Origin: Clostridium sp.
GTDB taxonomy: Bacteria > Bacteroidota > Bacteroidia > Bacteroidales > Bacteroidaceae
DNA length: 32,317 nucleotides
Direction: 5' to 3'
NCBI GenBank assembly: GCA_023663705.1
Contig: JAMPGY010000028.1
Coordinates: 1 to 32,317 of the forward strand
Position 1 is the first letter of the stretch, and every line of letters starts with the position of its first letter. Below are positions 12,292 to 30,927 of this stretch, piece after piece. The notes below the pieces were generated by a model. That model worked only from the letters and a program-made list of their open reading frames with translations, searched no databases and was not told where the DNA came from. Made by a program: the position numbers and the translations under genes.

Positions 12292-14775
12292 TTATCGGAT
12301 AAACTTGATGGTGTGGGTCTTGTTGCCGCATACCACCTGCATCAGATAGGTGCCGCGGGGCAGACTTCCGGTCTTCACTGTCGTTTCGCCGTTTTGTCCG
12401 GCGGCAGGTGTGGTTTGTCCCGCCACTTGTCCGCTCATGGTGAGCAGACGGATGCGTTCTACCGTAGCGTTGCTGCACACGGTGATGTCGCCGTTGTCTT
12501 CGTGGCGCAGGATGAAAGGTTGTGCTTCTTCATCGGTTCGTACAGAGCCGATGGCTGTGGGCCGGACGATGCGGAACGTGCGGCTGGCAACGCGGGTAAA
12601 CTCATAATTGGGATAGGTGTAGAACTCGTAGACATAGGTGCCCGGTTCGCCGCTCACGGGCAGACTGAGGGAGAGGGTGCTGGTCTGTCCGGCTTCCACA
12701 AAGGGCAGGTCCCAGGCGTATCCGATCACTTCATTGCTGCCCATCCGGTAATAGTGATGGTAGACCTGTGTGGTGTTCACGCTGCCTGTTCCGGAGATGG
12801 ACAAAGTGGCACTCACGTTCAGTTCGCTTCCGCTCTCCACGTTGGTACTTTGCAACCGGATGTTGGACACCTTGAGTGTGGGTGTGCCTGCGGTGGGTTT
12901 TAGCACGGTGATGTTTTCATACGTGTCGCTGTAATAGATGTCGTGACCGAAACTGAAGGCCGGATGTATGATGTATTCTCCGGCGTTGAGATTCACGTTC
13001 GTCTTGACGGTGTAGGTCACACTCTCGCCCGATGCGAGCTGAAGTTGCTGTCCCTTCCAGTAGGCCACCATCGTCTCATCCGTATCGTCAAATACGGCTA
13101 TGCCGTTCTCGCCGCAGAAGTAATCATCACCGTTGTTGGTCACCGTCACTTCGATGCCGGCTTCATAGCCGGTGTAGAAACTGTGGGTTGAGGTGAGGGT
13201 CAGGTCGAGGTCGTCGGCCGTAGTGGGAGTGCCGGCTACTCTGCATGAGCCGTCACTGATGACTACGTATTGGAATGCTCCGAGGGCGGCCGGACCGTGC
13301 ACGCGTTGCCAGTCTTTCTCGCCTTTGGCACGGCTTGCCATGTACATTTTGTACGTGCCGTTGGAGATAGTGGCGGGGATTTTCACGTTGTAGAAGGCAT
13401 TTTCGCTCCAGCCCCACCCGTGGTCGAGTGTCGTTTCAAAAGACGTGAGCACGTGTTGATTGTCTTCACCGTCCAGAATCAGACCTATTTCTCCGCTGAA
13501 CGGGTTGCTGCGGTTGTAGAGATGGGTGAACGCGACACTGAATGTTACTCCTTTGGCTATGTAGTCCTTGTCGGGCGTGAGTGTCTGCACGGTGAATTGG
13601 CTGGCCGTCTGCGTTTTGTTTTCGTTGGGCTCCAGACCGACGAAGATCATCTGGCTGAACTGGTAACTACCGTCGTTGAATCCGCCGATGCCGGCACCGT
13701 TGGAGTTGAGTGTGAGCAGGTCGAAATAGCCGTTGCAATATCCGCCCCATCCCCAATTGACATGCACCTTGTCGTTCGTGTCGTAGCCGTCTACAACAAA
13801 GGCGTGTCCGCCCTGTGTGGATTGTCCGCTGTAGTAGATGGGGCGGCTGGCGTTCAGCTCTGTTTTTACGATCGACATCCATTCGTCCGGTGTGTAGTTG
13901 GTTTTGTAGGCGATATAGTCTGGAGCATAACCGAGGTGCTCCGACAGACCGAGAAACATGTCTGAGTCGTAGGCGCCCGATGCACCGGTGGTGTAGTCCA
14001 TCTGGCAAGCCGCTCCGCAGGCCAGCATCAGATTGGCCACGGCTTTTATCTGCTTGTCGCTTTCGAATTCACCGAAGTAAGTGGGACAAATCTGTTCCCA
14101 TTCAAAAGGATTGGATTCAAAGTCGTAGGTGACACGGAGTCCCAGTGACCGGGTGGTGTAGTCGGCTGTGCCTTGTCCGGAAGCCGGCCATTGCCAGTAG
14201 CGCATAATCTGTGCGATGGCGGTGGCCACGCATCCCGTCACGCTGTTTTGTCCGTTCACCTGAGGACAGAGTTGATTGTAGGGAGCGTCTTGGTTGTACT
14301 GTATGTTGCGCAGCAACGGACTCACCGAAGAGGCGAAGTCGTTGTCGGTGTGTTTGGTAACACTGACGGATGTCAGACCGGTTGCATGCTCCTCTTCGGA
14401 AGGTAGCCTGTCGAAAACATCGGCATAGTAGCCCAACCAATTTCTGACATTGTCCGGCATGTTCTCCGTCACAAAAGGACAGTCCTCCGAATAGCCCAGG
14501 ATCTCGGGCATGCGGTCATCTCCGGACACGATGACAAAGGCCTTCCCGTCCTGGTTATAGATGTAGAATGCCGGTATGTCTGTCTTGCGTGCGGGCAAGA
14601 GAGTGGAGGACGTTGCTGCCAGCACCGGCGTTGCGGTGGCGCGTAAGGTTGCGGTGGCGCTATGGCGCAACAGATGTGCCCGTGCGGCGGCAAGAGCCTG
14701 CTGCGGTGTGCGTGGAGCTGCTTGCAACAGACAACTCATCCATAATGCACAGATTGCAAAAAAGTTTCTTTTCAT
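12292..14775 (-). CDS. Secreted C10 family cysteine protease (streptopain/interpain type) with T9SS-like C-terminus
   Basis: The 827-aa product has a signal peptide (about 1-20), a prodomain (about 21-150, Spi_C10-like) and a papain-fold C10 peptidase domain (about 151-382). The catalytic Cys182 lies in NSVTGCVATAIAQ and the catalytic His324 in GGHAFVVDGYD; NWGWGG follows at 340-345. Beta-rich modules span about 385-750. The last roughly 75 residues (RIRLLTMSGQVAGQ ... LPRGTYLMQVVCGNKTHTIKFIR) resemble a type A T9SS sorting domain. The size and order recall interpain A of Prevotella intermedia, a C10 protease that degrades complement C3; equivalence is inference. The protein is probably made as a zymogen and exported to the surface or medium. 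It is first in a two-gene unit with the lipoprotein gene. Confidence 0.92.
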   Translation of the reverse strand: MKRNFFAICALWMSCLLQAAPRTPQQALAAARAHLLRHSATATLRATATPVLAATSSTLLPARKTDIPAFYIYNQDGKAFVIVSGDDRMPEILGYSEDCPFVTENMPDNVRNWLGYYADVFDRLPSEEEHATGLTSVSVTKHTDNDFASSVSPLLRNIQYNQDAPYNQLCPQVNGQNSVTGCVATAIAQIMRYWQWPASGQGTADYTTRSLGLRVTYDFESNPFEWEQICPTYFGEFESDKQIKAVANLMLACGAACQMDYTTGASGAYDSDMFLGLSEHLGYAPDYIAYKTNYTPDEWMSIVKTELNASRPIYYSGQSTQGGHAFVVDGYDTNDKVHVNWGWGGYCNGYFDLLTLNSNGAGIGGFNDGSYQFSQMIFVGLEPNENKTQTASQFTVQTLTPDKDYIAKGVTFSVAFTHLYNRSNPFSGEIGLILDGEDNQHVLTSFETTLDHGWGWSENAFYNVKIPATISNGTYKMYMASRAKGEKDWQRVHGPAALGAFQYVVISDGSCRVAGTPTTADDLDLTLTSTHSFYTGYEAGIEVTVTNNGDDYFCGENGIAVFDDTDETMVAYWKGQQLQLASGESVTYTVKTNVNLNAGEYIIHPAFSFGHDIYYSDTYENITVLKPTAGTPTLKVSNIRLQSTNVESGSELNVSATLSISGTGSVNTTQVYHHYYRMGSNEVIGYAWDLPFVEAGQTSTLSLSLPVSGEPGTYVYEFYTYPNYEFTRVASRTFRIVRPTAIGSVRTDEEAQPFILRHEDNGDITVCSNATVERIRLLTMSGQVAGQTTPAAGQNGETTVKTGSLPRGTYLMQVVCGNKTHTIKFIR

Positions 14776-14976: not shown

Positions 14977-15789
14977 TTATTCATGGAATGGTTCTCTGCA
15001 TAATTCCCAAAAAGCTACAGCCGATGCTGCAGCCACGTTGAGTGAGTCCACGCCGTGGGCCATGGGGATGCGCACCACATAGTCGGCTGCGGCAATGGCC
15101 TGGGCGGGCAAGCCGTCTCCTTCGGTGCCCATGATAATGGCCAGGCGCTGTTCGTTGCGCAAGGCAGGGTGGGTGAGCGGTACGGAGCGGTCTGTGAGTG
15201 CCATGGCGGCTGTGCGGAAACCTAATGGCCGCAGGTCGTCGGCCGAGTCTATCCATGTCCAAGGCACCAGAAACACGGAACCCATCGACACACGGATGGA
15301 GCGCCGGTTGAGCGGGTCGCATGAGTCGCGTGTCAGCAGTACGGCATTGATGCCCAGGGCGGCAGCAGAACGGAATATGGCTCCGATGTTGGTGGTGTCT
15401 GTCACCCCCTGTATCACCACCACGCGTCGCGCCCCGTTGCACACTTCCGACACCCGGCGTTCCGCCGGTCGCCTCATGGCGCAGAGCACTCCTCGCGTGA
15501 GTACATAGCCGGTAAGGGTGGATAATAGGTCGCGCGATCCGGTATAGACGGGCATGTCGGCCGGACAGCGGCGGATGATATGGGCCGCGTCGCCTTCCAG
15601 GTGGCGTGGTTCGCACAGCATGGCCAAGGGCTGGTAGCCCTGGTTGAGTGCCACCCCGATCACTTTCGGACTTTCCGCTATGAAAATGCCCTGTTCGGGA
15701 TGCAGGCGGTTGCGCAACTGCGGTTCGGTGAGCGAGGCAAACACCTCCACGCCCGGATGGGCAAGGCTGTTGATTTCTACGACAGGCAT
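14977..15789 (-). CDS. SpoU/TrmH family RNA 2'-O-methyltransferase
   Basis: This enzyme probably methylates ribose 2'-OH in rRNA or tRNA using S-adenosylmethionine. The 270-aa product has an N-terminal substrate-binding domain (about 10-115) and a C-terminal SPOUT knot. All three family motifs are visible: TTNIGAIFRSAAALG at 132-146 (Asn134, Arg140), IMGTEGDGLP at 219-228, and IPMAHGVDSLNVAAASAVA at 241-259. The length matches the TrmH/RlmB-type group (about 250-280 aa). The exact RNA target cannot be assigned from the sequence. It is transcribed divergently from the cobalamin-riboswitch operon and appears monocistronic. Confidence 0.93.
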   Translation of the reverse strand: MPVVEINSLAHPGVEVFASLTEPQLRNRLHPEQGIFIAESPKVIGVALNQGYQPLAMLCEPRHLEGDAAHIIRRCPADMPVYTGSRDLLSTLTGYVLTRGVLCAMRRPAERRVSEVCNGARRVVVIQGVTDTTNIGAIFRSAAALGINAVLLTRDSCDPLNRRSIRVSMGSVFLVPWTWIDSADDLRPLGFRTAAMALTDRSVPLTHPALRNEQRLAIIMGTEGDGLPAQAIAAADYVVRIPMAHGVDSLNVAAASAVAFWELCREPFHE

Positions 15790-15948: not shown

Positions 15949-15981
15949 TTGTTCCTTTATGGATTTTTATGTTTATCTTTG
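15949..15981 (+). promoter_or_regulatory. Promoter of the cobalamin-riboswitch operon
   Basis: TATCTTTG (15974-15981) is a perfect -7 element. TTG at 15949-15951 sits 22 nt upstream, slightly long for the -33 spacing. Transcription would begin close to 15988, right before the aptamer. Confidence 0.65.
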
Positions 15982-15987
15982 CCGCGG

Positions 15988-16200
15988 TTTTGGTACCCGA
16001 AGCGCTGCGTAACGCGTGAGGGTTTAAAAGGGAATCAGGTGAGAATCCTGAACAGTCCCGCTGCTGTAACTTCCATTGCATGCAGACAACACACCCCAAT
16101 CCACTGGCTCAGGCCGGGAAGGAGTTGTCTTGCTGGAAGAAGTCAGAAGACCTGCCTCAATCCTTTTCTCGGAATCGTGTCACGAGCGATGACCTTCCGG
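15988..16200 (+). ncRNA. Cobalamin (B12) riboswitch
   Basis: The conserved aptamer parts occur in order. AAAAGGGAATCAGGTGAGAA and then CAGTCCCGCTGCTGTAAC span 16026-16070. CCACTGG and CCGGGAAGG span about 16101-16122. The B12 box AGTCAGAAGACCTGCC is at 16141-16156, preceded at the 5' end by GGT near 15992. A short TCGTG/CACGA hairpin after the B12 box may be the partner for the loop-loop contact. Binding of cobalamin normally lowers expression of downstream genes. The next genes on the strand are the exported proteins at 16384 and 17522. The outer boundaries are approximate. Confidence 0.93.
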
Positions 16201-16383
16201 ATACGAATTAATATTCTTAAGTATATTCATGCAGACGAAACTGTTGTGATGGTCCGGTGACGGAAAATCCATGTTCGTACGTCTCGGTATCGCAGGTTGC
16301 GGTTTTCCGCATCGCTGTGGGGGACGATGGGATGCAAGAGAGATGTCGCATGGGGATACTCGGGGATTCAAAGAAATGAAAAT
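16201..16383 (+). promoter_or_regulatory. Long leader between riboswitch and first gene
   Basis: About 180 nt separate the aptamer from the start codon at 16384, so the riboswitch is unlikely to mask the ribosome binding site directly unless it folds across this stretch. A GC-rich imperfect hairpin (GCGG-TTTTCC-style region around 16290-16325) is visible. Very short reading frames such as the one at 16228 are present, but none looks like a gene. A transcription-terminating expression platform is possible but no clear T-run was found. Confidence 0.4.
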
Positions 16384-17481
16384 ATGAAAAGAAAAGAACT
16401 TTTTTTGTGGATGCTGGCTGCGGCTACAGGTGTGGTGCGCGGACAGCAGTTGGCCGATGTGCCGGAACACGGGTGCTACATTCTGGCGGTGGACGAATAT
16501 GTGCCGGCGCCGGGACAGTTTGTCAACACGATGCCTCAGTGGGAAGAGGGCGATACACCGGCCACGATGGCAGCCAAGTGTACGGAAGCCATTGGCGGAA
16601 ATCGTCGCGGACTGGTGTCGCTCGGTGCCTGGGGTGGATACATAACCTTCCATTTCGACCATAGTATAGCCAACATAGCCGGACAACGCGACTTCTGCAT
16701 CTTGGGCAATGCCTTGCAGAGCGAGCAGGCCGTGGCCGGTGGCGGTGGCGCCGAGCCGGGGGTGGTCATGGTTTCGAAGGACGTGAACGGCAATGGGCTG
16801 CCCGACGATCCCTGGTATGAGTTGGCCGGAAGCTGTGATGTGGACAGTGTCCTGCTGCTGAACTACTGCTATGAACTGACCTATCGGCGTGATGGCGAAC
16901 TGCAGGCTGTGCCTTGGAGCGACAATCTCGGCCGTTCGGGAGCAGTGCCTCGCAACATTTTCCATCGGCAGGAATACTTTCCCGGATGGATGGAAGATGA
17001 AATCACTTTCACCGGAACGCTCCTGCCGGCCAATGCCGTGGATGTGAACGGCGACGGCAAGCAATGGCTGCAGATGTTTTTCCGCTACGGCTATGCCGAC
17101 AACCGGCCCAACAGCGACCGTGAGGGATGCAGCATGGACATTTCGTGGGCAGTGGATGCCGACCGCCGTCCTGTGCAGCTCGACTTTGTGGACTTTGTGC
17201 GCGTGTATACCGGCGTGAATCAGGCTTGCGGGCTCTTGGGAGAGAGTTCCACCGAGGTGATGGGGGCTGAGGATCTCCACCTTGAGGCCTCGCTCGCAGC
17301 CATCCGCGAGGCGCGGAATCCGTCTGGAGTGGGGGCTGCTTCTGTCGCTTGTCAGCCGGCCTGCGAGGTGTCCCGCCATGCCGTAGATGGCCGTTGCGTA
17401 TCGGCGTCGGAACATGGATTGCACATCATTCGCATGAACGACGGCACCACGCGCAAGGTGATGACACGCACTGGACGATAA
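16384..17481 (+). CDS. Exported 'cell surface protein' controlled by the B12 riboswitch
   Basis: The 365-aa product has a signal peptide (about 1-20, cleaved near VRG/Q). A single beta-rich domain follows at about 30-305. It contains GAWGGYITFHFDHSIAN near 81-97, EPGVVMVSKDVNGNGLPDD near 124-142, and a second Asp/Asn loop DVNGDGK at 220-226. The two loops look like calcium-binding DxNxDG motifs. It ends with FVRVYTGVNQ, then GAEDLHLEASL, and a C-terminal tail (DGR ... GLHIIRMNDGTTRKVMTR) that resembles a T9SS-type tail and is shared with the giant next gene. I recall such 'cell surface proteins' in Bacteroidetes cobalamin loci, but this is from memory. Riboswitch control and a 40-nt gap to the next gene indicate one operon. 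A role in cobalamin binding is inferred. Confidence 0.8.
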   Translation: MKRKELFLWMLAAATGVVRGQQLADVPEHGCYILAVDEYVPAPGQFVNTMPQWEEGDTPATMAAKCTEAIGGNRRGLVSLGAWGGYITFHFDHSIANIAGQRDFCILGNALQSEQAVAGGGGAEPGVVMVSKDVNGNGLPDDPWYELAGSCDVDSVLLLNYCYELTYRRDGELQAVPWSDNLGRSGAVPRNIFHRQEYFPGWMEDEITFTGTLLPANAVDVNGDGKQWLQMFFRYGYADNRPNSDREGCSMDISWAVDADRRPVQLDFVDFVRVYTGVNQACGLLGESSTEVMGAEDLHLEASLAAIREARNPSGVGAASVACQPACEVSRHAVDGRCVSASEHGLHIIRMNDGTTRKVMTRTGR

Positions 17482-17521
17482 TCAGAAACTATTCATTCAC
17501 ATCATTTTATCATCTATATTT

Positions 17522-20500
17522 ATGAAATTTATGAAACAACAATCTTACACGATTGCGGCAACGCTGTTGTGGCTGTTGATTCCCCTGTCTCTCTGGGCGC
17601 AGGACGAAGGCGTCACAGCGGTAAATCAGCCGCAGTTCGGCAGACAGGTGGTGACTGTGAAAACGGGCGAGGAGATTCTCTTCTACGATCCAAAAGGGAC
17701 GGCTGCCATGTCGAGCAGTTCGAGCAATAACACGCAGTCGCTCACAGTGTTCAAGCCGGAAGAAGAAGGTATGTCCGTGCAGGTCACGTTCGACTCGTTC
17801 GATGTGAAGAACGACGGTGCCAGCTATCCCGGCAAAGTGTATGTATACAGCGGAGACCCCGACGCGGACGAATCGTTCGTGTGGGCAACCAACACCTACA
17901 GCGGTTTCACCACGATGCCCGAGGGGGACGTGATGGAAATACTTGACGGTGACTATGCCGACAAGTCTTTCTATTCAACCTCGCCCGACGGTATCTTGTC
18001 TGTGGGCATGCTGTGGAAGTATGCCAAACGCTGTGAGGGATGGGTGGCCCGGGTAAAGGTCATCAAGCTCACCGACATGACCGTGACCGGCGCGGCAGCC
18101 GATTACAGCGCTGTGCTGTCCTCACCTAAGGGAAAGGCCAATGTTGTACTAGCCGGATTTAACGTCACGGCCGATGGCATTATGAATCCCGACCGTCTGA
18201 CCTCTGTCTCTTTCAAACTGAACAAAAACGAGGCGGCTATAGATCCGCTGTCGCTACGGTTGTATGCCGGTGCAGAGCCGGTCAAAGACGCCACACCTAT
18301 AGAGACTACGGTGACAGCCGAAGGCGATGCCTACCGCATGACACTTGATCAAACCTTGCTTACTGGAAGCAACGACTTTGTGATTGCCGGAGATTTCCCG
18401 CTCACGTCAGCCGTGGGCACGGAGGTGGAACTGGCGGTGACCGGTGTGGCTACCGAAGCCCTGCCCGATGGAGTGGATCCCTTTGATGCTGCCACTCCCG
18501 TCACGGTGCAGAATCCCGCTATCGTACTGATGCAGCAGGGTGATATGACGGTGAGTGTGGACGATACGCCCCTTACGCTCTACGATGACGGCGGTGCCGA
18601 CGGACAAATCACCAAAGCCTTTCAGGGACGGGTGACTTTCGTTCCGGTGGTGGAGGGAAAGAAAGTACAGATAGACCTCACCAGCGTGAAGCTCTACGGC
18701 ACGTCCTATGCCATCTACTACCAGTATATAAATGTGTACAACGGTAAGGAAGCCACACCCGAAAATCTCATCCGCACATTCCGCAGCGATGAGACGGCGC
18801 TGATACATTCCACGTCAGCAGATGGCGCACTCACGCTCGAACTCACCCACAACGGACTGACAGGCTTTACCGATGACGGCATTGAAGCCACGGTGAGCCT
18901 CTTCGAGCCGCAGGCCATGACGCTGGAAAGTGCTGTCGCAAGTCAGGTGGCAGAGGGCACCGTCTGTGCCGGTGATGCGGGACAGGCTATTCTGAAGGTG
19001 AACCTGCGCACGCAGAACACCGAGCCGGCTCTGACGGCCGATAAGTTTGTGTTTACCACAAACGGGACAAACGCAGTCGTTACCCGTGCCACACTCTACT
19101 ACGGCAAGGCTGATGCCACGATGGCCGTGAAGACACAGGTGGGCGAGGTGGCCGTGGAAGGCGACAATATCGTCATCACACCCGCACAGCCCGTTGTACT
19201 CGCCGAGGGCGATAACTGGTTTGTGCTCACCTACGACATCAGCGACATGGCTCTGAACGGCCAGAAGATAGATGCCAGTCTGACCTCCGTCACCCTCAGT
19301 GGCACGGATACAACACCCAAAAACGGCAATCCGGACGGAGACCGCACGGTGGAGAACACCGTCTACTCGTTCCTCAACCAAGGCACCGTGGTGAAGAGCG
19401 TGAACGGAACACTCACGTTCAAGACACGCGCCAAAAGCGACTACTCGTCCGACTACGAGAGCGGTACGGACGACCGCATCAACACCTTTGTGCCGATGCA
19501 CGAGGGAATGATTTGTCAGATTGAATTTTCAAAATTCGCCCTTTTCTACGGTTCGAGCAGTTATCAGCCCAAGGCCAAGTTCCGCATCTATAGCGGACAG
19601 GGCACTGCGGGCGATCTGCTGTGGGAACTAAACTCGGCCGATTTGAAAGAAGTGGGACCCGACCGTGTGATCCGTTCCACTTCGTCCGACGGTGCGCTCA
19701 CTGTGGTGTTCAACCCCACCGAGAGCAATACCTATTACACCGCAGCCGGCTTTGAGGCAACGGTGAGCGAATACCAATCTCAGCCCATGACCTACGAATC
19801 TGCCGAGGTGATGCAGACCGCTGCGGGCATCGTCTCCGTCGGAGCGGAAGGGGAGGCATTGCTCACGGTGAACATCACCACCAAGGGTGATACGGACAAT
19901 CTCAGTCTGGGCAGTCTGAAGTTCGGTTTGAAAGGTTTGCAGGCTAATATCAGCCGGCTCAGTCTGTATGCCGTGGGCAATAAGGACACCGAACCGTCTG
20001 CCGATGCACAGCCCGTGGCTACGGCCGATGTGACGGTGGATGATGCCGAGGTAATCCTCACGCTGGCCGAACCGCAGGTTTTGGCCGAGGGACGCAACTA
20101 CTTCCGCCTGTTGGTTGATGTGGCCGGTGAGGCTGCTTCAGACAGCGAGATAGATGCCCTGCTTCAGACCGTAAATATCAGCGGTACGGAATATACCGTG
20201 GAAAACGGCGACCCGGACGGCGCACTCACGGTGAAGGATCTCTACATACTGAAAGCCGGAGACAACGGTGAGGTCGTTGTCAGGCCGGGACGCAACATAC
20301 TCTTCTACGATGATGGCGGAGCAGACAACAGCGCCTCCAAGGACTTTGAGGGTACGGTGACGTTTGTGCCCGGAGGCGAGGGCGATGTAATCAAACTCGC
20401 TTACGACCTGATTAAACTCAGTTATAGCGATCACTTGTATATATATAATGGTGGCAGTGTGGATGAGGCCAATCCGGCCCGTGACTATTCCGGTTCCAAC

Positions 20501-23500
20501 ATCAGCGATAAGGAATATGTATCTACGGCCGAAGACGGAAAGGTGACGGTGCGCTTCGTAGTGAAGAGCAGTTACTCGTTGCCCGACTTTGCCATGACGG
20601 TGAAGTCTTACCGCACGAAGGCTAAGGAAATCGTAGCTTCCGAAGCCGTAACCGTGGCTCCCGAAGGCGTGATGCGTGGACAGCAGGACGTACCCATGGT
20701 GCGCCTGGCACTTACTATTGAAGGAGACTACGATGCTGTAGACCTGACCCGTTTCGATGTGTCTGCCGAAGGCACGGGACTGAAGAATATCAAGGTGTAT
20801 GCCACCGGTACAGCCGGTACCTTTACGCCCAACAACCTCTACGGTACGTTGACTGAGGGAACCGCAACCGTGGAGGGCAGTTACACCATGACCGACAACG
20901 AGACCTACTATTTCTGGCTCACCGGTGACATTGACACTGCCGCCGAGGTTGGCGATAAGCCCGCCATGGTTTTCACCGCCTTCACGGCCAACGGCATCGT
21001 GACAACGGAGGAAACTCCCGCGCGTGGAGAAACTGAGATAAAGGCCGGAGTCAGCGGCACCATAACCGTGGGGGCGGGAGCCGACTACGGAACCATTCAG
21101 GCAGCGGTGGATCACATCGCCGCCGGTATCGACGGACCTGTGGTAATTAGCATCAAGCGTGGCATCTACAACGAACTGGTGAATATTCCGGAGATTCCCG
21201 GTGCTTCGGCTCTGAACACCATTACAATCCAAAGCGAGACGGGCGACTACCACGATGTAAAGGTATACCACAACCACTATTCGGAACCCGTCTACAGCGA
21301 AGATAAGATGTTCCACGAATACGGCGTGTTCACCATAGCCGGTGCGGATCACGTCACGGTGCGCGGTATTGAGTTTACCACCGAGGACATCACTTTCCCG
21401 GGCATCCTGCACGTGAAGAACGTGAGCCGGAACGTGACCATCGAGGACTGCTATGTGTACACCGAGACGGTGACCAGCTACTCCAACGACATCAACCTCA
21501 TCTACACCTATGCCAGGAGTGAGGCCAATCAGAACAACGACCGCCTGACCGTGCGCGGCTGCCTGCTCGAGGGTGGATATATCGGCGTTCGCCTGGGTGG
21601 TACGAGCACTGTGGCACTGCCCAAACAGGTGGGCGGCGTGGTGGAGAACTGCGTGCTGCGCAACCAGGGAAGCAAGGGCATTTATGCTTACGATGAACTG
21701 GGAGCCACCATCGTGAACAACACGTTTGAGAACTCCGTTTCCGATGCTTCCACCTGCTACGGCATCGACATCAATGTGCGCGAGGCCAATGCCCTGCAGA
21801 CCCGCATTGAGGGCAACCGCTTCAACTTTTCTTCGCCCAAGGCGGCCATTCCCCTGTATATGCGCAACATGGTGGGTACGGCCGATGTACCGGTGTTGGT
21901 GTTGAACAACGAGATTGTGCTCGACAGCCGGAGTGCATCCGGCGCGGGTATCGAGGTGAGCAGTGCGTCGTCTTATCTCAACATCGCCCACAACAGCGTT
22001 CGCCTCACCGGTACGGACGGACGGGCCATGTGGTTCAACGACAGCATGGGCGAGGGGGTGAATGTGGTGAACAACATCTTCCAGAACGAGACCGCAGGCC
22101 CCGTATACCGTTTCTACAAGGAGGCGAACGTGGCTACTGTCAACCTCTCCCACAATGTCATTTCCACTTCCGGCACTACGTTCGCTCATGCCGGTGGCGA
22201 TATCGCCACCTACGAGGATTGGCTGGCACTGTCCGCCGAAGCGGACGGATATAACGAGACGGTGAGCTTCCTTTCCGACGAAATCCTTGAACCGGCCGAA
22301 GAGGGCTCGCTTCTCCACGCTGCCGCGCTCGACTATGTCACTGTAGACATCACCGGCACACCTCGTGCAGGGCAACCCACCATCGGTGCCTACGAATACA
22401 ACGCCTCTGCCGAAGCGCCCGTTGTGGCCGAAGGATATCCCATGGCGAAGCACGTCACCGACACTACGGCCGTAGTGGCCATCAAGGCCGATATGAACGG
22501 CGTGGCCTACGTGATGGTGCGTCCGGCTTCGGAAGAAGCCCCTGCGGTGGATGACTTGAAAGCGAGCGAGACAACTGTGGTCTTGCGCAAGAATGCGGAA
22601 AGCACCGTGACGGTGGAAGGGCTGGTGACCGATGAAGAGTACATCGCCTACGTGGTGGCACGCAGCTTGCGCGGCATGGACGGCGGGGTGGTGGCCGGTG
22701 CTCCGTTCATCGCTTCCGGCGAGGTGATTGTGGAGATTCCCACGCCCGAACTGACGGCTGAAGGCGACACCGTGGCTGCCGGCAGTGAGGCGACGCTTAT
22801 GGCTGTTGTGGCCGGAGGAACGGCACCCTATACGCTCACGTGGATGAATGGAAAGCGTGAGGAAGTGGCTACGGTCACCCTTGATGAGGACGGTACGGCC
22901 TTCTCAGCGTGCACTCCGGATGAGTGTGACGACTACACGGTCAGTGTGGTGGATGCCAACGGCAAGACGGGCACGGCTACGGCCCGTGTCATCGTGACGG
23001 GTGAGGCCGTCACGGCCACTTTTGAGAACCTTTATCTCGATCCGGAAAGCTATTGGAACGGCTTCGATGCCGTGCCCGAGGGCGAGGATGCCCATGAGGG
23101 AAGTTTCGTGAGCGGTTCCTATGCGTTCGACAACGGTTGCATGCCGGAGTACAGCTACTGGTACAACTTCGGTTACACCAACCAGACGGCCACTACCTTT
23201 GAAAGCATGAACGACCAGTTCCATTCGGCTGCCGGTGGTGGTTACGATGGTTCGGAAACCTTTGCTGTGGCTTTCCCCAGCGGAGGCGGTGTCACCGTGC
23301 TCAACAAGGCAGAGGGTGATTCCATCCGCGGATTCTACGTCACCAACTCGGCCTATGCCTACACCTCGATGACCCATGGCGACAGCTTCTCACGCAAGTA
23401 TGAGGCGGGCGACTGGCTGAAGCTGATCGTCAGTGCTCAGGACGGAGAGGGAGACACCCGCACTGTGGAATACTATCTGGCCGACTTCCGTTCGGAAAAC

Positions 23501-24061
23501 GAGTCTGACCATTATATTCTCGACACGTGGCAGTGGGTGGATCTGCGTCCGTTGGGCATAGTGAAGACACTCACCTTTGCCCTCGACGGAACGGACAAGA
23601 GCTACGGTTATCTCAACACGCCGGCCTACTTCTGCATGGACGACTTCAACGGACATCGCGCCATCACTGAGGCAGAGGAGCAGACCGTGACGGGAGACAT
23701 CGTGCTGGCTGACCTCTTCACATTCGATGAGGATGAGGCCACGGTGACGTATGCACTGCCCGATGGACTGCCCGAGGGCATAGCGGCTACGGTGGAGATT
23801 ACCACCGACGGCATGCTGCGCGTGAACGGTCAGGTCGGCGAGGACTTCAGTCTGCTGGTGAGCGCCACTCAGCGCGGACAGATTCAGTTCGTGCGTCTGC
23901 CGCTTCACTTCGAGGCCAACGGTATCTCGTCCGCACGTCCGGCGGAAACCGGTGTGACTGCGCGTTACACCCTCGACGGTAGACGCACCGCCACGGATGC
24001 GCGCGGAGTGACCATCCGTCGTATGACGGACGGAACGGTGCGGAAGGTTGTCACGAAGTAA
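17522..24061 (+). CDS. Giant exported multidomain protein with CUB-like repeats, beta-helix and DUF4465, under B12 riboswitch control
   Basis: The 2179-aa product has a signal peptide (cleavage after about Ala26). Four CUB-like modules lie at about 35-185, 337-464, 619-753 and 909-1036, with markers such as LYDDGGADGQITKAFQG, IYSGQG and STSxDGALT. They alternate with four domains resembling the BNR-associated N-terminal domain, with LAEGDNWFVLTYDIS- and YYFWLTGDID-type motifs. A right-handed beta-helix follows (about 1176-1630, beginning ADYGTIQAAVDHIAAGIDGP), then FN3-like (about 1640-1738) and Ig/PKD-like (about 1738-1830) modules. A DUF4465 domain spans about 1830-2045 (FYVTNSAYAYTSM, VEYYLADFRSE, WQWVDLRPLG, NTPAYFCMDDF). 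The end is a DGR...RMTDGTVRKVVTK tail. I recall DUF4465 as the family of the B12-binding lipoprotein BtuH, but could not check it. Domain borders are approximate. No transporter gene adjoins. Confidence 0.88.
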   Translation: MKFMKQQSYTIAATLLWLLIPLSLWAQDEGVTAVNQPQFGRQVVTVKTGEEILFYDPKGTAAMSSSSSNNTQSLTVFKPEEEGMSVQVTFDSFDVKNDGASYPGKVYVYSGDPDADESFVWATNTYSGFTTMPEGDVMEILDGDYADKSFYSTSPDGILSVGMLWKYAKRCEGWVARVKVIKLTDMTVTGAAADYSAVLSSPKGKANVVLAGFNVTADGIMNPDRLTSVSFKLNKNEAAIDPLSLRLYAGAEPVKDATPIETTVTAEGDAYRMTLDQTLLTGSNDFVIAGDFPLTSAVGTEVELAVTGVATEALPDGVDPFDAATPVTVQNPAIVLMQQGDMTVSVDDTPLTLYDDGGADGQITKAFQGRVTFVPVVEGKKVQIDLTSVKLYGTSYAIYYQYINVYNGKEATPENLIRTFRSDETALIHSTSADGALTLELTHNGLTGFTDDGIEATVSLFEPQAMTLESAVASQVAEGTVCAGDAGQAILKVNLRTQNTEPALTADKFVFTTNGTNAVVTRATLYYGKADATMAVKTQVGEVAVEGDNIVITPAQPVVLAEGDNWFVLTYDISDMALNGQKIDASLTSVTLSGTDTTPKNGNPDGDRTVENTVYSFLNQGTVVKSVNGTLTFKTRAKSDYSSDYESGTDDRINTFVPMHEGMICQIEFSKFALFYGSSSYQPKAKFRIYSGQGTAGDLLWELNSADLKEVGPDRVIRSTSSDGALTVVFNPTESNTYYTAAGFEATVSEYQSQPMTYESAEVMQTAAGIVSVGAEGEALLTVNITTKGDTDNLSLGSLKFGLKGLQANISRLSLYAVGNKDTEPSADAQPVATADVTVDDAEVILTLAEPQVLAEGRNYFRLLVDVAGEAASDSEIDALLQTVNISGTEYTVENGDPDGALTVKDLYILKAGDNGEVVVRPGRNILFYDDGGADNSASKDFEGTVTFVPGGEGDVIKLAYDLIKLSYSDHLYIYNGGSVDEANPARDYSGSNISDKEYVSTAEDGKVTVRFVVKSSYSLPDFAMTVKSYRTKAKEIVASEAVTVAPEGVMRGQQDVPMVRLALTIEGDYDAVDLTRFDVSAEGTGLKNIKVYATGTAGTFTPNNLYGTLTEGTATVEGSYTMTDNETYYFWLTGDIDTAAEVGDKPAMVFTAFTANGIVTTEETPARGETEIKAGVSGTITVGAGADYGTIQAAVDHIAAGIDGPVVISIKRGIYNELVNIPEIPGASALNTITIQSETGDYHDVKVYHNHYSEPVYSEDKMFHEYGVFTIAGADHVTVRGIEFTTEDITFPGILHVKNVSRNVTIEDCYVYTETVTSYSNDINLIYTYARSEANQNNDRLTVRGCLLEGGYIGVRLGGTSTVALPKQVGGVVENCVLRNQGSKGIYAYDELGATIVNNTFENSVSDASTCYGIDINVREANALQTRIEGNRFNFSSPKAAIPLYMRNMVGTADVPVLVLNNEIVLDSRSASGAGIEVSSASSYLNIAHNSVRLTGTDGRAMWFNDSMGEGVNVVNNIFQNETAGPVYRFYKEANVATVNLSHNVISTSGTTFAHAGGDIATYEDWLALSAEADGYNETVSFLSDEILEPAEEGSLLHAAALDYVTVDITGTPRAGQPTIGAYEYNASAEAPVVAEGYPMAKHVTDTTAVVAIKADMNGVAYVMVRPASEEAPAVDDLKASETTVVLRKNAESTVTVEGLVTDEEYIAYVVARSLRGMDGGVVAGAPFIASGEVIVEIPTPELTAEGDTVAAGSEATLMAVVAGGTAPYTLTWMNGKREEVATVTLDEDGTAFSACTPDECDDYTVSVVDANGKTGTATARVIVTGEAVTATFENLYLDPESYWNGFDAVPEGEDAHEGSFVSGSYAFDNGCMPEYSYWYNFGYTNQTATTFESMNDQFHSAAGGGYDGSETFAVAFPSGGGVTVLNKAEGDSIRGFYVTNSAYAYTSMTHGDSFSRKYEAGDWLKLIVSAQDGEGDTRTVEYYLADFRSENESDHYILDTWQWVDLRPLGIVKTLTFALDGTDKSYGYLNTPAYFCMDDFNGHRAITEAEEQTVTGDIVLADLFTFDEDEATVTYALPDGLPEGIAATVEITTDGMLRVNGQVGEDFSLLVSATQRGQIQFVRLPLHFEANGISSARPAETGVTARYTLDGRRTATDARGVTIRRMTDGTVRKVVTK

Positions 24062-24085
24062 TTACACTTTCCCTTTTATAACTCT

Positions 24086-24131
24086 GCGGGGACGGATGCC
24101 GGAAGAATGGCATTCGTCCCCGCTTTCGTTT
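24086..24131 (+). terminator. Rho-independent terminator of the riboswitch operon
   Basis: A 15-bp stem (GCGGGGACGGATGCC 24086-24100 / GGCATTCGTCCCCGC 24109-24123, one G-T pair) is followed by TTTCGTTT. It lies 25 nt after the stop of the giant gene. Confidence 0.88.
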
Positions 24132-27819: not shown

Positions 27820-30123
27820 ATGGCTAAATTGAATAAAATAATTTCACTATTAATATTGGCAGTGGCATTGAGTAGCCTTGAGGCACTGGCACAACAAACA
27901 TTTGTTATAAAAGGCCGGGTAATGGAAGCAGAAACAAAAGAATCTCTTATCGGGGCATCTGTAAAATGTGGCTCTGCTGGATCCGCAACAGATGTTAATG
28001 GCAATTATGAGCTCTCCGTAAAAGAAGGCTCATATGATATTGAATGTTCCTATATCAGTTTTGAAAGTGATAAACGTAGGATTATTGTTTTTCGTGACAC
28101 AGTTCTTAATTTTGAGTTGCAGAGTTCTACAAGCGAATTGTCAGAAGTTGTTGTGCTGTCACGTTCTGTGACAGACAGGTTAAGCAACACGCAGCCCGGT
28201 ATGGAACGTATTGACCTTGATGAGATGTCGAAAACTCCCGTGTTGTTCGGAGAACGCGATATACTCAAATCATTGCAACTTCTTCCCGGAGTGTCGGCTG
28301 AAGGGGATGGTACCGGCGGATTTCAGGTGCGGGGCGGCACGGCAAATCAGAACCTTGTATTACTGGACGATGCTCCAGTTATAAATTCAGGGCATCTGTT
28401 TGGCTTTTTCTCTACATTCAACGATCCCGCATTATCAAGTGCCACACTCTACAAAGGTCAGATCCCAGCGCGTTACGATGGAGCGACTTCATCCGTATTT
28501 AGTGTGAACACAAAAGCCGGTAATGCCGAAAGCTACAAGGGTTCTTTCACTGTCGGATTGTTGTCGGCCAAATTTGACATAGAAGGACCGATCATCAAGG
28601 AAAAGCTCTCTTTCTTTGTATCCGCCCGACGTTCCTATATGGATATGTTCCTTAAATTTACAGACCAATTTAAGGATAACTCACTTTATTTTTACGATAT
28701 AAACGCGAAAGTCAATTATAATGTAGGATGTAATGACAAATTAGCGGTGTCGTTATTCGTCGGGCGTGATAATCTCGGAATGAGCGATATGATGAATATG
28801 CAGTGGGGCAATATCACTACGACGGCAAAATGGTATCATACGTTCAATGACCGGCTCGCATCAGTTGCGACTCTGTATCATGGCAATTTTATAAACGACA
28901 TGGGTATGCAGATAACCTCCGAGGATGATAATATGAACGGTCATCTGCGTCAGACGGGAATAAAATATACATTTTCGTGGAATCCGCACGAGAATCATAA
29001 TGTGGATTTTGGATTGCAGTCGGCTCTTATTGACTTGAAATCCGCTGAATGGACTATGGGGACGACACACCAGAAGGAGCAACGCCGGGGTTGGGAAAGC
29101 GGAGTATGGATAAATGACGACTGGGCCATAAACGAGCGTGTTCATGTAATGGGCGGCATCCGTCTGTGCATCATGTCGGCATTAGGAGGTTCCCCGTATT
29201 ACAAAATGGATGAGGGGGGCAATATAATCGACAGCTTTACGCCTCGTAACGGAAAGCCATATAAGACATATCTGGCCGTCGAACCGCGTCTGAGTATAAA
29301 TTACCGCATAACCGATTTGCAAAGTATAAAAATGGCATACAGCAGAAGTTCGCAGAATATTCATGCCATACGCAGCACGGGGTCTTCCATGCCGTTTGAC
29401 AGATATGCGATGACCAGCAATCTCATAAAGCCTCAGACTGCCGATCAGGTGAGTGCCGGGTACGCGGCTCTCTTCGGAAACACTCGATGGGAAATATCCG
29501 GCGAGATGTTCTATAAGAATATCCACAATATCTATGATTATAAGGACGGAAAATCATTCAATTCCGAAATTGAGATAGAGCGTCTTCTCTTGGAGGGCAA
29601 GGGCCGCGCATACGGTTTTGAGTTCACCTTGCGCAAGAACGCAGGTAAACTTACCGGGTGGGTTGGCTATACTTTGTCTTGGGCGCAGAACAAGATAGCC
29701 GGTATAAATAACGGGAATTGGTACACCGCCGGCAACGACAGACGCCATGATATATCTGTGGTCGGCATATATCAGTTCAATAAAAAGTGGAATATGTCTG
29801 CCGCATGGGTATTCAACACAGGACAGGCACTGACCGCACCGAGTGCAAAATATGAGGTAGATGGGATTCATATGTTCCATTATGCGGAAAGAAACGGATA
29901 CCGCGCTCCGGCATATCATCGACTGGATTTAAGCGCGACATATACGCATGACGGGCCGAAACTTACCTATGAATGGTCATTCGGAATATACAACGCCTAT
30001 TCGCGTTACAATCCGTTTCTGATAGTATTTGAAACCGACGAAAACGCTCCGACCGGCTTTAAGACCATGAAGCATTCCCTTTTCGGTTTGGTTCCTTCGG
30101 TGTCATACACATTAAAATTCTGA
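27820..30123 (+). CDS. TonB-dependent outer-membrane receptor with carboxypeptidase-regulatory-like domain
   Basis: This outer-membrane active transporter is powered by TonB. The 767-aa product has a signal peptide cleaved near Ala24 (ALA/QQ) and a CarboxypepD_reg-like beta domain (about 29-108, with VKGRV-, GATV- and DVNGNYEL-type motifs). A plug domain spans about 118-230 (ERDILKSLQLLPGVSAEGDG, FQVRGGTANQNLVLLDDAPV), and a beta-barrel ends in a C-terminal Phe (VSYTLKF). It lacks the long N-terminus of SusC proteins and has no SusD partner. Instead a DUF4249 lipoprotein gene follows 6 nt later. The divergent AraC regulator probably controls it. The substrate cannot be read from the sequence; peptides, metal complexes or other small ligands are possible. 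Confidence 0.93.
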   Translation: MAKLNKIISLLILAVALSSLEALAQQTFVIKGRVMEAETKESLIGASVKCGSAGSATDVNGNYELSVKEGSYDIECSYISFESDKRRIIVFRDTVLNFELQSSTSELSEVVVLSRSVTDRLSNTQPGMERIDLDEMSKTPVLFGERDILKSLQLLPGVSAEGDGTGGFQVRGGTANQNLVLLDDAPVINSGHLFGFFSTFNDPALSSATLYKGQIPARYDGATSSVFSVNTKAGNAESYKGSFTVGLLSAKFDIEGPIIKEKLSFFVSARRSYMDMFLKFTDQFKDNSLYFYDINAKVNYNVGCNDKLAVSLFVGRDNLGMSDMMNMQWGNITTTAKWYHTFNDRLASVATLYHGNFINDMGMQITSEDDNMNGHLRQTGIKYTFSWNPHENHNVDFGLQSALIDLKSAEWTMGTTHQKEQRRGWESGVWINDDWAINERVHVMGGIRLCIMSALGGSPYYKMDEGGNIIDSFTPRNGKPYKTYLAVEPRLSINYRITDLQSIKMAYSRSSQNIHAIRSTGSSMPFDRYAMTSNLIKPQTADQVSAGYAALFGNTRWEISGEMFYKNIHNIYDYKDGKSFNSEIEIERLLLEGKGRAYGFEFTLRKNAGKLTGWVGYTLSWAQNKIAGINNGNWYTAGNDRRHDISVVGIYQFNKKWNMSAAWVFNTGQALTAPSAKYEVDGIHMFHYAERNGYRAPAYHRLDLSATYTHDGPKLTYEWSFGIYNAYSRYNPFLIVFETDENAPTGFKTMKHSLFGLVPSVSYTLKF

Positions 30124-30129
30124 TAACAA

Positions 30130-30927
30130 ATGAAATATCTATATTATATTGCTGCATTATGCCTATTATGCTCGTGCGAGGAGGAAATACAGCTTGACTA
30201 TCGTTCGATAAACCCGCTTTATGTGATAGAGGGTCATGTAAGTAACGACATTTCCGAAGTAATGATAACCCGGACATGTGATATTGATGATCCGGTGTTA
30301 AAGAGTGGAATCGAGGTTCAATCTGTTATACTGTCTTCAGATAACGGCATTAAAGAAACGCTGACTTATGGAGAAGCCGGTATATACCGTTCTCATGCAT
30401 TCGTGGGGATACCCAATGAAACATATACTCTTACGGTAGTTATAGACAGGAGATCTTATGTTTCAAGCTCAACGATGCCCGGATTTACTGAAATCGTATC
30501 CACCCGTATGCGATGGGAGGAAATGATGGGTAACGATATGCTTCATCTGATAGTGGATATCAGCGACAAAGCCGACGATATAAACTACTATTACTACCGG
30601 ATACTCAGGAACGGCAAACTGTTCAAATGGAATGTCGTGCGTGATCTCGACAACTCAAACAGCACTGTGCAGTTTGACATAAGCTGCATGAACCGTGACA
30701 AGGCGGAAAAAAATGACCCGGACGATTACGATTCCATTCTGTTTGAAGGGGATGATCTAACGATAGAGGTAAGAGCGATAGATATGAAGACGTATGATTA
30801 TCTTTTCTCGGCAAAACTTTCGGGACATAACCATTCAAATCCTATATATGATTTTTCGGGGGTATTTGAGGCTTACTTTCCGATGCAGTTTGGGAAGGGG
30901 GGTAAGTGTCAAGCGTTTGCGGTTTAA
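30130..30927 (+). CDS. DUF4249 family surface lipoprotein, partner of the TonB receptor
   Basis: The 265-aa product has a short signal ending in a lipobox (LCSC, Cys16) followed by Glu-Glu-Glu, which fits Bacteroidetes surface-lipoprotein export signals. The body matches the DUF4249 pattern: early YVIEGHVSND-like strand, EAGIYRSHAFVGIPNETYTL, DINYYYYRILRNGKLF, and LSGHNHSNPIYDFSGVFEAYF near the end. DUF4249 proteins commonly pair with receptors like the one 6 nt upstream and may serve as an extracellular lid, analogous to SusD; that role is inferred. The last roughly 10 residues follow a run of six G's (about 30896-30901). A one-base change there would replace them with a longer basic tail, so the true C-terminus is uncertain. 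Confidence 0.82.
   Translation: MKYLYYIAALCLLCSCEEEIQLDYRSINPLYVIEGHVSNDISEVMITRTCDIDDPVLKSGIEVQSVILSSDNGIKETLTYGEAGIYRSHAFVGIPNETYTLTVVIDRRSYVSSSTMPGFTEIVSTRMRWEEMMGNDMLHLIVDISDKADDINYYYYRILRNGKLFKWNVVRDLDNSNSTVQFDISCMNRDKAEKNDPDDYDSILFEGDDLTIEVRAIDMKTYDYLFSAKLSGHNHSNPIYDFSGVFEAYFPMQFGKGGKCQAFAV

What the first reader, a model, noticed from the sequence alone, without database searches (positions are those of the whole stretch)
15949..24131. B12-riboswitch operon encoding a 2179-aa multidomain exported protein
Seen: a clear cobalamin aptamer, one promoter, two exported-protein genes 40 nt apart and a strong terminator. The second protein carries four CUB-like modules, a beta-helix and a DUF4465 domain. 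Known: B12 riboswitches in Bacteroidetes control B12 uptake genes, including surface binding proteins. Inference: this is a cobalamin-capture or B12-responsive adhesive system built on a giant scaffold rather than a small lipoprotein, and it lacks an adjacent BtuB. I know of no described B12 protein of this architecture.
Basis: partly seen in the sequence, partly recalled or inferred. Interest (0 to 1): 0.78.

Follow-up and report, generated by a model that had tools for sequence, protein, structure and literature searches.

The report
Giant exported probable B12 trap
A bacterium of the Bacteroides-Prevotella group has a vitamin-B12-controlled operon for two probable B12-grabbing proteins, one of them a 2,179-residue arm of at least ten modules that ends in a secretion-type tail where well-studied relatives carry a lipid anchor.

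Summary
In detail: cobalamin riboswitch (98 bits), promoter-like site, two exported-protein genes 40 nt apart, terminator, DUF4465 (167 bits), beta-helix and four CUB-like modules (one checked by a predicted fold). The NTPAY loop and the Tyr146 equivalent are conserved.

The giant is not unique: 51 of 81 loci examined carry one; 35 of the 51 lie in a gene run headed by a cobalamin riboswitch, alone or after btu genes. Here BtuB-BtuG and BtuC lie elsewhere in the genome.

Both proteins lack a lipobox and end in a short tail related to type IX secretion (T9SS) signals. In 175 BtuG/BtuH/DUF4465 proteins, tail-or-CTD and lipobox co-occur in 2. All 14 tail-rich genomes have PorV, but 9 other PorV-positive genomes lack the tail, so the T9SS link is plausible, not proven.

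Exclusive lipoprotein or C-terminal targeting in this family is already in print; I found no account of the giant scaffold, the short tail, or its spread to BtuH and BtuG. Binding, secretion and regulation are untested.

The parts
15949..15981 (+). Bacteroidota-type promoter-like site TTG-N22-TATCTTTG
   Evidence: Pattern match, (6 matches in window, 0.64 expected); consensus recalled
15974..16173 (+). Cobalamin riboswitch aptamer RF00174
   Evidence: 98.4 bits, full length
16384..17481 (+). Gene 1: exported BtuH-family protein, 365 aa, no lipobox
   Evidence: Translation; PDB sequences 8blw 7.7e-68 and 7biz (BtuH2) 3e-43; lipobox pattern
17353..17478 (+). Short C-terminal sorting-type tail of gene 1
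   Evidence: Tail profile 7.5e-13; genome-wide match 1.3e-15 with an alignment that contains it
17522..24061 (+). Gene 2: giant 2179-aa DUF4465 (BtuJ-type) protein
17522..17602 (+). Probable type I signal peptide ending WA|QDEG (Gln after the cut)
   Evidence: Read by eye; Q-rule from PMC5837995 (passages)
17654..18055 (+). CUB-like module 1 (res 45-178)
   Evidence: 3.7e-20
18128..18457 (+). Ig-like BNR_assoc_N-type module 1 (res 203-312)
   Evidence: 1.5e-12
18548..18904 (+). CUB-like module 2 (res 343-461)
   Evidence: predicted fold matches solved CUB domains
18941..19357 (+). Ig-like module 2 (res 474-612)
   Evidence: GH33 sialidases among the matches
19475..19774 (+). CUB-like module 3 (res 652-751)
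   Evidence: 7.7e-30
19811..20239 (+). Ig-like module 3 (res 764-906), PF14873
20288..20605 (+). CUB-like module 4 (res 923-1028)
   Evidence: 1.6e-28
20654..21040 (+). Ig-like module 4 (res 1045-1173)
   Evidence: 5e-16
21260..21820 (+). Right-handed beta-helix PF13229 (res 1247-1433, best stretch)
   Evidence: 28.9 bits, cut-off 25.9
23147..23647 (+). DUF4465 / BtuJ-type B12-binding domain (res 1876-2042)
   Evidence: 6.3e-49; only match in this genome; model matches D5EK51-B12 and BtuJ1
23615..23629 (+). HI-loop motif NTPAY (res 2032-2036), equivalent of BtuJ1 N241-Y245
   Evidence: motif described in PMC13398666
23942..24058 (+). Short C-terminal sorting-type tail of gene 2
   Evidence: 2.9e-16 with an alignment that contains it; tail family related to type A CTD
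24086..24123 (+). Intrinsic-terminator-like hairpin

Best explanation
This is a cobamide-capture operon. When cobalamin is scarce the riboswitch lets a BtuH-family protein and a giant BtuJ-type (DUF4465) protein be made. [quoted passage not shown] The DUF4465 domain, near the C-terminal attachment end, binds B12; the CUB/Ig/beta-helix arm points outward as a spacer or binder. Captured B12 passes to BtuB-BtuG and the inner-membrane transporter, encoded elsewhere. Shown by computation: parts, families, binding-loop residues, locus conservation, near-exclusion of tail and lipobox, T9SS genes in the genome. Inferred: binding, secretion route, regulation, transfer and orientation of the arm.
For: Riboswitch. 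BtuH homology of gene 1. DUF4465 at 6e-49; predicted fold (pLDDT 90.2) matches D5EK51 with B12 (E 6e-20) and BtuJ1 (TM 0.79); NTPAY loop and Tyr146 equivalent (Tyr1945) conserved. 51 of 81 loci (window plus 80 named) carry one gene with more than 800 residues aligned to the arm; 35 of the 51 lie in a gene run headed by a cobalamin riboswitch. The riboswitch pattern recovered 12 of 12 Rfam-known sites, none in 6 loci where Rfam found none, and 1 in 1.40 Mb of shuffled sequence. T9SS here: SprA 2781 bits, PorV 424 bits. PorV over cut-off in 16 of 16 genomes whose DUF4465 frame is at least 1000 aa, against 17 of the other 30 examined. SprA over cut-off in 12 of 12 genomes behind named loci, 11 with giants and one (L161) with a small DUF4465 protein. 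All 14 genomes rich in the tail (8 or more matches) have PorV over cut-off, and 12 of 12 genomes without it have 0-1. Tail or CTD versus lipobox over 175 BtuG/BtuH/DUF4465 proteins: 122 tail or CTD only, 35 lipobox only, 16 neither, 2 both. Tail aligns to canonical CTDs, probability 89%; six orthologous giants end in a CTD found by the own-genome profile.
Against: Of 23 PorV-positive genomes searched with the tail, 9 have 0-1 matches, among them four Bacteroides-like genomes with full PorV (G135, G163, G121, G279), which keep small lipobox DUF4465 proteins; so the tail follows certain genera and T9SS alone does not predict it. Neither protein is recognised by TIGR04183 or by a profile of 21 own-genome CTDs. 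Two of four BtuH2 B12-contact residues are changed in gene 1 (Y510 to Q227, W577 to L284), and B. theta BtuK2 shows that a btu-locus homologue may not bind (PMC12751083, passages). The BtuJ1 Tyr97 equivalent aligns to Met1896. The tail profile was trained on DUF4465 tails, so only BtuG/BtuH are an independent test (36 tail or CTD, 22 lipobox, 13 neither, 2 both), and rows are related. Lipobox calls are a crude pattern, not SignalP. The BtuG of this very genome keeps a lipobox-like signal (read). No expression or binding data for this organism.
Confidence: 0.62

Rival explanations
1. The giant is mainly a B12-regulated adhesin: CUB, Ig and beta-helix modules bind a surface or glycan, and the DUF4465 domain helps the cell settle where B12 is found rather than feeding uptake.
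For: About 1,170 of 2,179 residues fall in matched CUB, Ig and beta-helix stretches; GH33 sialidases are among the fold matches; an orthologue has a SprB-repeat hit below cut-off (22.5 of 28 bits).
Against: The same DUF4465 domain occurs in many short proteins (249-620 aa), including 7 BtuH-DUF4465 fusions, so capture does not need the arm; orthologous giants follow btuBGH.
Confidence: 0.15
2. The tail leads to release, so the pair works as free or vesicle-borne B12 scavengers (like BtuJ on B. theta vesicles) whose cargo is later taken up by the cell.
For: T9SS cargo can be anchored to A-LPS or released (PMC10202324, passages); BtuJ1/J2 deliver B12 on vesicles in B. theta (PMC12751083, passages).
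Against: A 2.2k-residue free protein would be a costly scavenger and needs a recovery route; no direct evidence either way.
Confidence: 0.3
3. The tail is not a T9SS signal: it is a lineage-specific end with another role, and both proteins stay in the periplasm or leave by another route.
For: TIGR04183 and the own-genome CTD profile do not recognise it; 9 of 23 PorV-positive genomes searched have 0-1 copies.
Against: All 14 tail-rich genomes have PorV, it aligns to CTDs, orthologues carry CTDs at the same end, and the last 22 residues of a CTD suffice for secretion (PMC10202324, type A section). A periplasmic 2.2k-residue arm makes little sense.
Confidence: 0.18

Closest known systems
BtuJ1/BtuJ2 (DUF4465, IPR027828) of B. 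thetaiotaomicron; D5EK51 of Coraliomargarita
   Same: Domain, fold, HI-loop motif, DE-loop Tyr; for BtuJ also riboswitch and btu-locus setting
   Different: Those are short proteins (250-305 residues in the solved chains) with a lipid or plain signal peptide; here the domain sits near the end of a 2,179-aa CUB/Ig/beta-helix arm with a sorting-type tail
BtuH2 and the BtuH domain of BtuG1
   Same: Gene 1 is homologous over the B12-binding domain
   Different: No N-terminal PKD/Ig domains, no lipobox, C-terminal tail; two of four contact residues changed
T9SS type A cargo with C-terminal domain (TIGR04183/PF18962)
   Same: Signal peptide, C-terminal Gly-rich turn and basic end related by profile, T9SS in the genome
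   Different: Tail is about 35-40 residues, not detected by TIGR04183
Eukaryotic cubilin (CUB receptor for intrinsic factor-B12, PDB 3kq4)
   Same: CUB fold (rank 45, after neuropilin, PCPE-1 and others)
   Different: Generic fold similarity only; no evidence of carrier-protein binding

Membership tests
Cobalamin riboswitch RF00174 | Covariance-model score over gathering, full length | tested here: met
   98.4 vs 31.5 bits, 1-189/189
Cobalamin riboswitch RF00174 | B12-dependent change in expression | not testable with these tools
   No expression data for this organism
BtuJ / DUF4465 | PF14717 over cut-off | tested here: met
   167.1 vs 25 bits
BtuJ / DUF4465 | Augmented jelly-roll fold | tested here: met
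   Model pLDDT 90.2; 9hmu E 6.2e-20, 9fct TM 0.79
BtuJ / DUF4465 | HI-loop Asn-Thr-x-x-Tyr contacts | tested here: met
   NTPAY 2032-2036; contacts named
BtuJ / DUF4465 | DE-loop Tyr146 equivalent | tested here: met
   Tyr1945
BtuJ / DUF4465 | AB-loop Tyr97 equivalent | tested here: inconclusive
   Aligned to Met1896 in a weakly aligned region
BtuJ / DUF4465 | Binds cobalamin | not testable with these tools
   Published for eight other members (PMC13398666)
BtuH | Homology to the BtuH B12-binding domain | tested here: met
   8blw 7.7e-68, 7biz 3e-43
BtuH | Four named B12-contact residues | tested here: inconclusive
   His476 and Trp511 kept, Tyr510 and Trp577 changed
BtuH | N-terminal PKD/Ig domains and lipoprotein signal of BtuH2 | tested here: not met
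   365 aa, BtuH match starts at residue 30-36; no lipobox by pattern
T9SS type A cargo | TIGR04183 match | tested here: not met
   Gene 1 and gene 2 not among 32 own-genome matches at E up to 0.1
T9SS type A cargo | C-terminal motifs related to CTD | tested here: met
   Profile comparison 89% probability, 27 columns
T9SS type A cargo | T9SS machinery in the genome | tested here: met
   SprA 2781 bits, PorV 424 bits
T9SS type A cargo | Tail occurs wherever T9SS occurs | tested here: not met
   14 of 23 PorV-positive genomes tail-rich, 9 with 0-1
T9SS type A cargo | Secretion depends on T9SS | not testable with these tools
   Needs a mutant
CUB domain | PF00431 over cut-off | tested here: not met
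   13.1 vs 21.4 bits
CUB domain | CUB fold | tested here: met
   Model of module 2 with Ig 2: TSG-6 CUB TM 0.77 (target-normalised), neuropilin, PCPE-1

The most novel reading that the evidence does not exclude
The CUB-like arm does not merely space the domain: it captures B12-loaded carrier proteins (host haptocorrin or intrinsic factor, or other microbes' B12 binders), as cubilin does with its CUB domains, and the surface-proximal DUF4465 and BtuH domains strip the vitamin, so that a T9SS-delivered machine steals B12 from its carriers.
Probability: 0.06. Interest if true: 0.9.

Novelty: new variant of a known kind. Interest (0 to 1): 0.5.

Why it matters
It suggests that the surface B12-capture set worked out in Bacteroides as lipoproteins (BtuG, BtuH, BtuJ) has in Prevotella-like bacteria partly changed its export route, with the BtuJ domain mounted on a very long arm. 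If the tail is a T9SS signal, competition for a key gut vitamin is tied to type IX secretion, a class of giant unannotated surface proteins gains a function, and a short signal is defined that the current T9SS model TIGR04183 misses.

Tried and rejected

Canonical T9SS CTD: tested with TIGR04183 and a profile of 21 own-genome tails, not met; this led to the short-tail comparison.

Nine of 13 further PorV-positive genomes have 0-1 tails.

Viral origin: one viral-contig scan with the whole giant found nothing; only short exact peptides are scanned, so weak evidence. The arm has no other match in this genome at E up to 0.001. None of the 17 other same-genus genomes listed has DUF4465, so lateral gain or loss is open. 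A tree of 43 giants puts the window with two uncultured Prevotella (support 91), rooted at the midpoint for drawing only.

Cubilin link: CUB fold matches are generic (cubilin rank 45); a paper search for four terms including cubilin and Bacteroides found none. Kept only as the novel case.

Dropped or chosen rows: loci L089-L168 are the best 80 of 390 confirmed relatives and include near-identical strains (L098-L100). The tail table uses window, L005 and L040-L168, complete ORFs with distinct last 100 residues, 860 of 952. A2 uses 37 of the 71 tails. In one search I used 13 of the 21 own-genome CTDs. In one search I sent 46 of the 104 DUF4465-positive genomes, 35 of those, 12 genomes behind named loci; all chosen by me, not at random. 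Rfam scans of fetched stretches covered 15 of the 20. In G159 the PorV match is the shorter type (190 bits).
Full report
1. What is there. The window holds a cobalamin riboswitch aptamer at 15974-16173 (98.4 bits), a promoter-like site at 15949-15981 (consensus recalled), gene 1 at 16384-17481 (365 aa), gene 2 at 17522-24061 (2179 aa) and a terminator-like hairpin at 24086-24123.

2. Its sequence matches the BtuH domain of BtuG1 (8blw, 7.7e-68) and BtuH2 (7biz, 3e-43) (chain identities from PMC10404256, passages). BtuH2 binds B12 directly (PMC8941943, passages). Of four B12-contact residues named there, His476 and Trp511 are kept and Tyr510 and Trp577 are not, so binding by gene 1 is likely but not certain.

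3. Gene 2. Four CUB-like modules (45-178, 343-461, 652-751, 923-1028) alternate with four Ig-like modules of the BNR_assoc_N type (203-312, 474-612, 764-906, 1045-1173), followed by a beta-helix and, near the C-terminus, DUF4465. AlphaFold2 of CUB 2 plus Ig 2 (pLDDT 92.5) matches solved CUB domains (neuropilin, PCPE-1, TSG-6) and GH33 sialidases. The DUF4465 model (pLDDT 90.2) matches D5EK51 with B12, BtuJ1 and, less well, BtuJ2. Eight DUF4465 members are reported to bind B12 (PMC13398666; I saw the abstract, sections 3, 15, 16, 17 and part 1 of section 11). The HI-loop NTPAY motif is at 2032-2036 and the DE-loop Tyr at 1945; the Tyr97 position is Met in a weak part of the alignment. This is the only DUF4465 match and the only match of the arm in the genome.

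4. The rest of the pathway. The genome (2.74 Mb, 43 contigs) has three cobalamin riboswitches. One precedes a TonB receptor and a DUF5074 propeller-type lipoprotein taken as BtuB and BtuG, beside genes that look like methylmalonyl-CoA mutase (by eye). A FecCD permease (BtuC type) lies at C11:16741-17703 beside a BtuF-like frame (by eye). So the parts of a B12 uptake route exist, split over several loci.

5. Relatives. PF14717 occurs in 104 of 301 genomes drawn from the same family, in 22 of 30 genera, but in none of the 17 other same-genus genomes listed. A named scan confirmed 390 relatives and kept 80 loci, mostly Prevotella and its kin, with some Muribaculaceae and B. salyersiae. Of these plus the window, 51 of 81 loci carry a protein (1246-2616 aa, 48 of 51 complete) with more than 800 residues aligned to the arm. 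Gene runs upstream of them: riboswitch alone 23; riboswitch-btuH 5 (the window among them); riboswitch-btuB-btuG-btuH 5; riboswitch with btuB or btuB-btuG 2; btuB-btuG-btuH with no riboswitch in the fetched stretch 6; others 3; nothing within 700 nt 7. The riboswitch pattern was checked on known sites, on loci without one and on shuffled sequence.

6. Export. Neither protein has a lipobox by pattern; both show a likely type I cut before Gln (VRG|QQ and WA|QD, by eye), as is usual in Bacteroidota (PMC5837995, passages). Both end in a similar tail, roughly Y-x-L-D-G-R-R ... G-x-x-I-x-R-M-x-D-G-T-x-R-K-V. TIGR04183 and an own-genome CTD profile do not find it, yet profile comparison links it to CTDs over 27 columns (89%), and six orthologous giants end in a sequence that the own-genome CTD profile finds, among them P. 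corporis, P. falsenii, H. marshii and B. salyersiae. The last 22 residues of a CTD (motifs D and E) can suffice for secretion (PMC10202324, type A section). Over complete, distinct proteins the DUF4465 set splits into 13 lipobox proteins of 249-322 aa without tail and 89 without lipobox (283-2616 aa), 86 of which have tail or CTD. For BtuG/BtuH alone: 36 tail or CTD only, 22 lipobox only, 13 neither, 2 both. Controls: 0 of 568 internal segments hit the tail profile; 22 of 644 other ORFs do.

7. Does the tail go with T9SS? PorV is over cut-off in 16 of 16 genomes with a DUF4465 frame of at least 1000 aa and in 17 of 30 others. SprA is over cut-off here and in 12 of 12 genomes behind named loci, B. 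salyersiae included. Of 23 PorV-positive genomes searched with the tail, 14 have 8-108 matches (29 here) and 9 have 0-1; of 12 without PorV over cut-off, 12 have 0-1. The nine include four Bacteroides-like genomes with full-length PorV (about 450 bits) whose DUF4465 proteins are short and carry a lipobox (L050-L053). So every tail-rich genome has T9SS, but not the reverse: either the tail is a lineage-specific short CTD, which I favour, or the co-occurrence is phylogeny alone. In this genome BtuG itself keeps a lipobox-like signal (sequence).

8. What is already known. PMC12751083 (section 8) reports that of 824 IPR027828 sequences 229 carry IPR026444 and 88 IPR013424 (C-terminal extracellular targeting), 275 a lipoprotein signal, and that these never co-occur. 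So exclusion of lipid anchor and C-terminal targeting in this family is in print. What I did not find in print (searches; word searches in two papers; abstracts and listings only for most hits): the CUB/Ig/helix giants, the short tail missed by TIGR04183, and the same swap in BtuH and BtuG. B12 response of riboswitch-proximal genes in a Prevotella relative is reported for X. ruminicola KHP1 (PMC11575231, passages), not for this gene.

9. Judgement. A new variant of a known kind: BtuJ/BtuH-type B12 capture, riboswitch controlled, with a very long arm and a T9SS-like tail. Binding, secretion and regulation remain inference.

Noticed in passing
L004 4872-10100 (own genome C22): A cobalamin riboswitch lies about 410 nt upstream of an operon of two SGNH-type proteins and an MBOAT acyltransferase, which looks like surface O-acetylation; no B12 link is obvious.
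   Followed up: partly
L005 4916-12396 (own genome C40): Riboswitch, BtuB-like receptor and BtuG-like lipoprotein end next to genes that look like methylmalonyl-CoA mutase subunits on the other strand (by eye).
   Followed up: partly
window 12292-14775 (-): C10-family peptidase with an I69 inhibitor prodomain and a T9SS C-terminal domain over the TIGR04183 cut-off.
   Followed up: partly
window 27820-30927 (+): TonB receptor with carboxypeptidase-like N-domain followed by a DUF4249 protein; a separate uptake pair.
   Followed up: no
L087, L088, L125, L134, L135, L143, L148, L163: BtuH and DUF4465 fused in one protein of about 580-620 aa with the short tail (L125 is the named copy of L087).
   Followed up: partly
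L137 8855-11512; L131 4589-12262; L114 and L119: Proteins with three or four DUF4465 domains, and loci with two adjacent large DUF4465 proteins.
   Followed up: no
L072 11674-12477, L108 12534-13337, window 14977-15789: A TrmH/SpoU-like methyltransferase gene (named by eye) lies near the giant in both this genome and Xylanibacter muris, a possible shared site.
   Followed up: partly
G023, G049, G024, G010 versus G135, G163, G121, G279: PorV-positive genomes differ sharply in the number of short tails (9-83 against 0-1), so the tail marks certain genera.
   Followed up: partly
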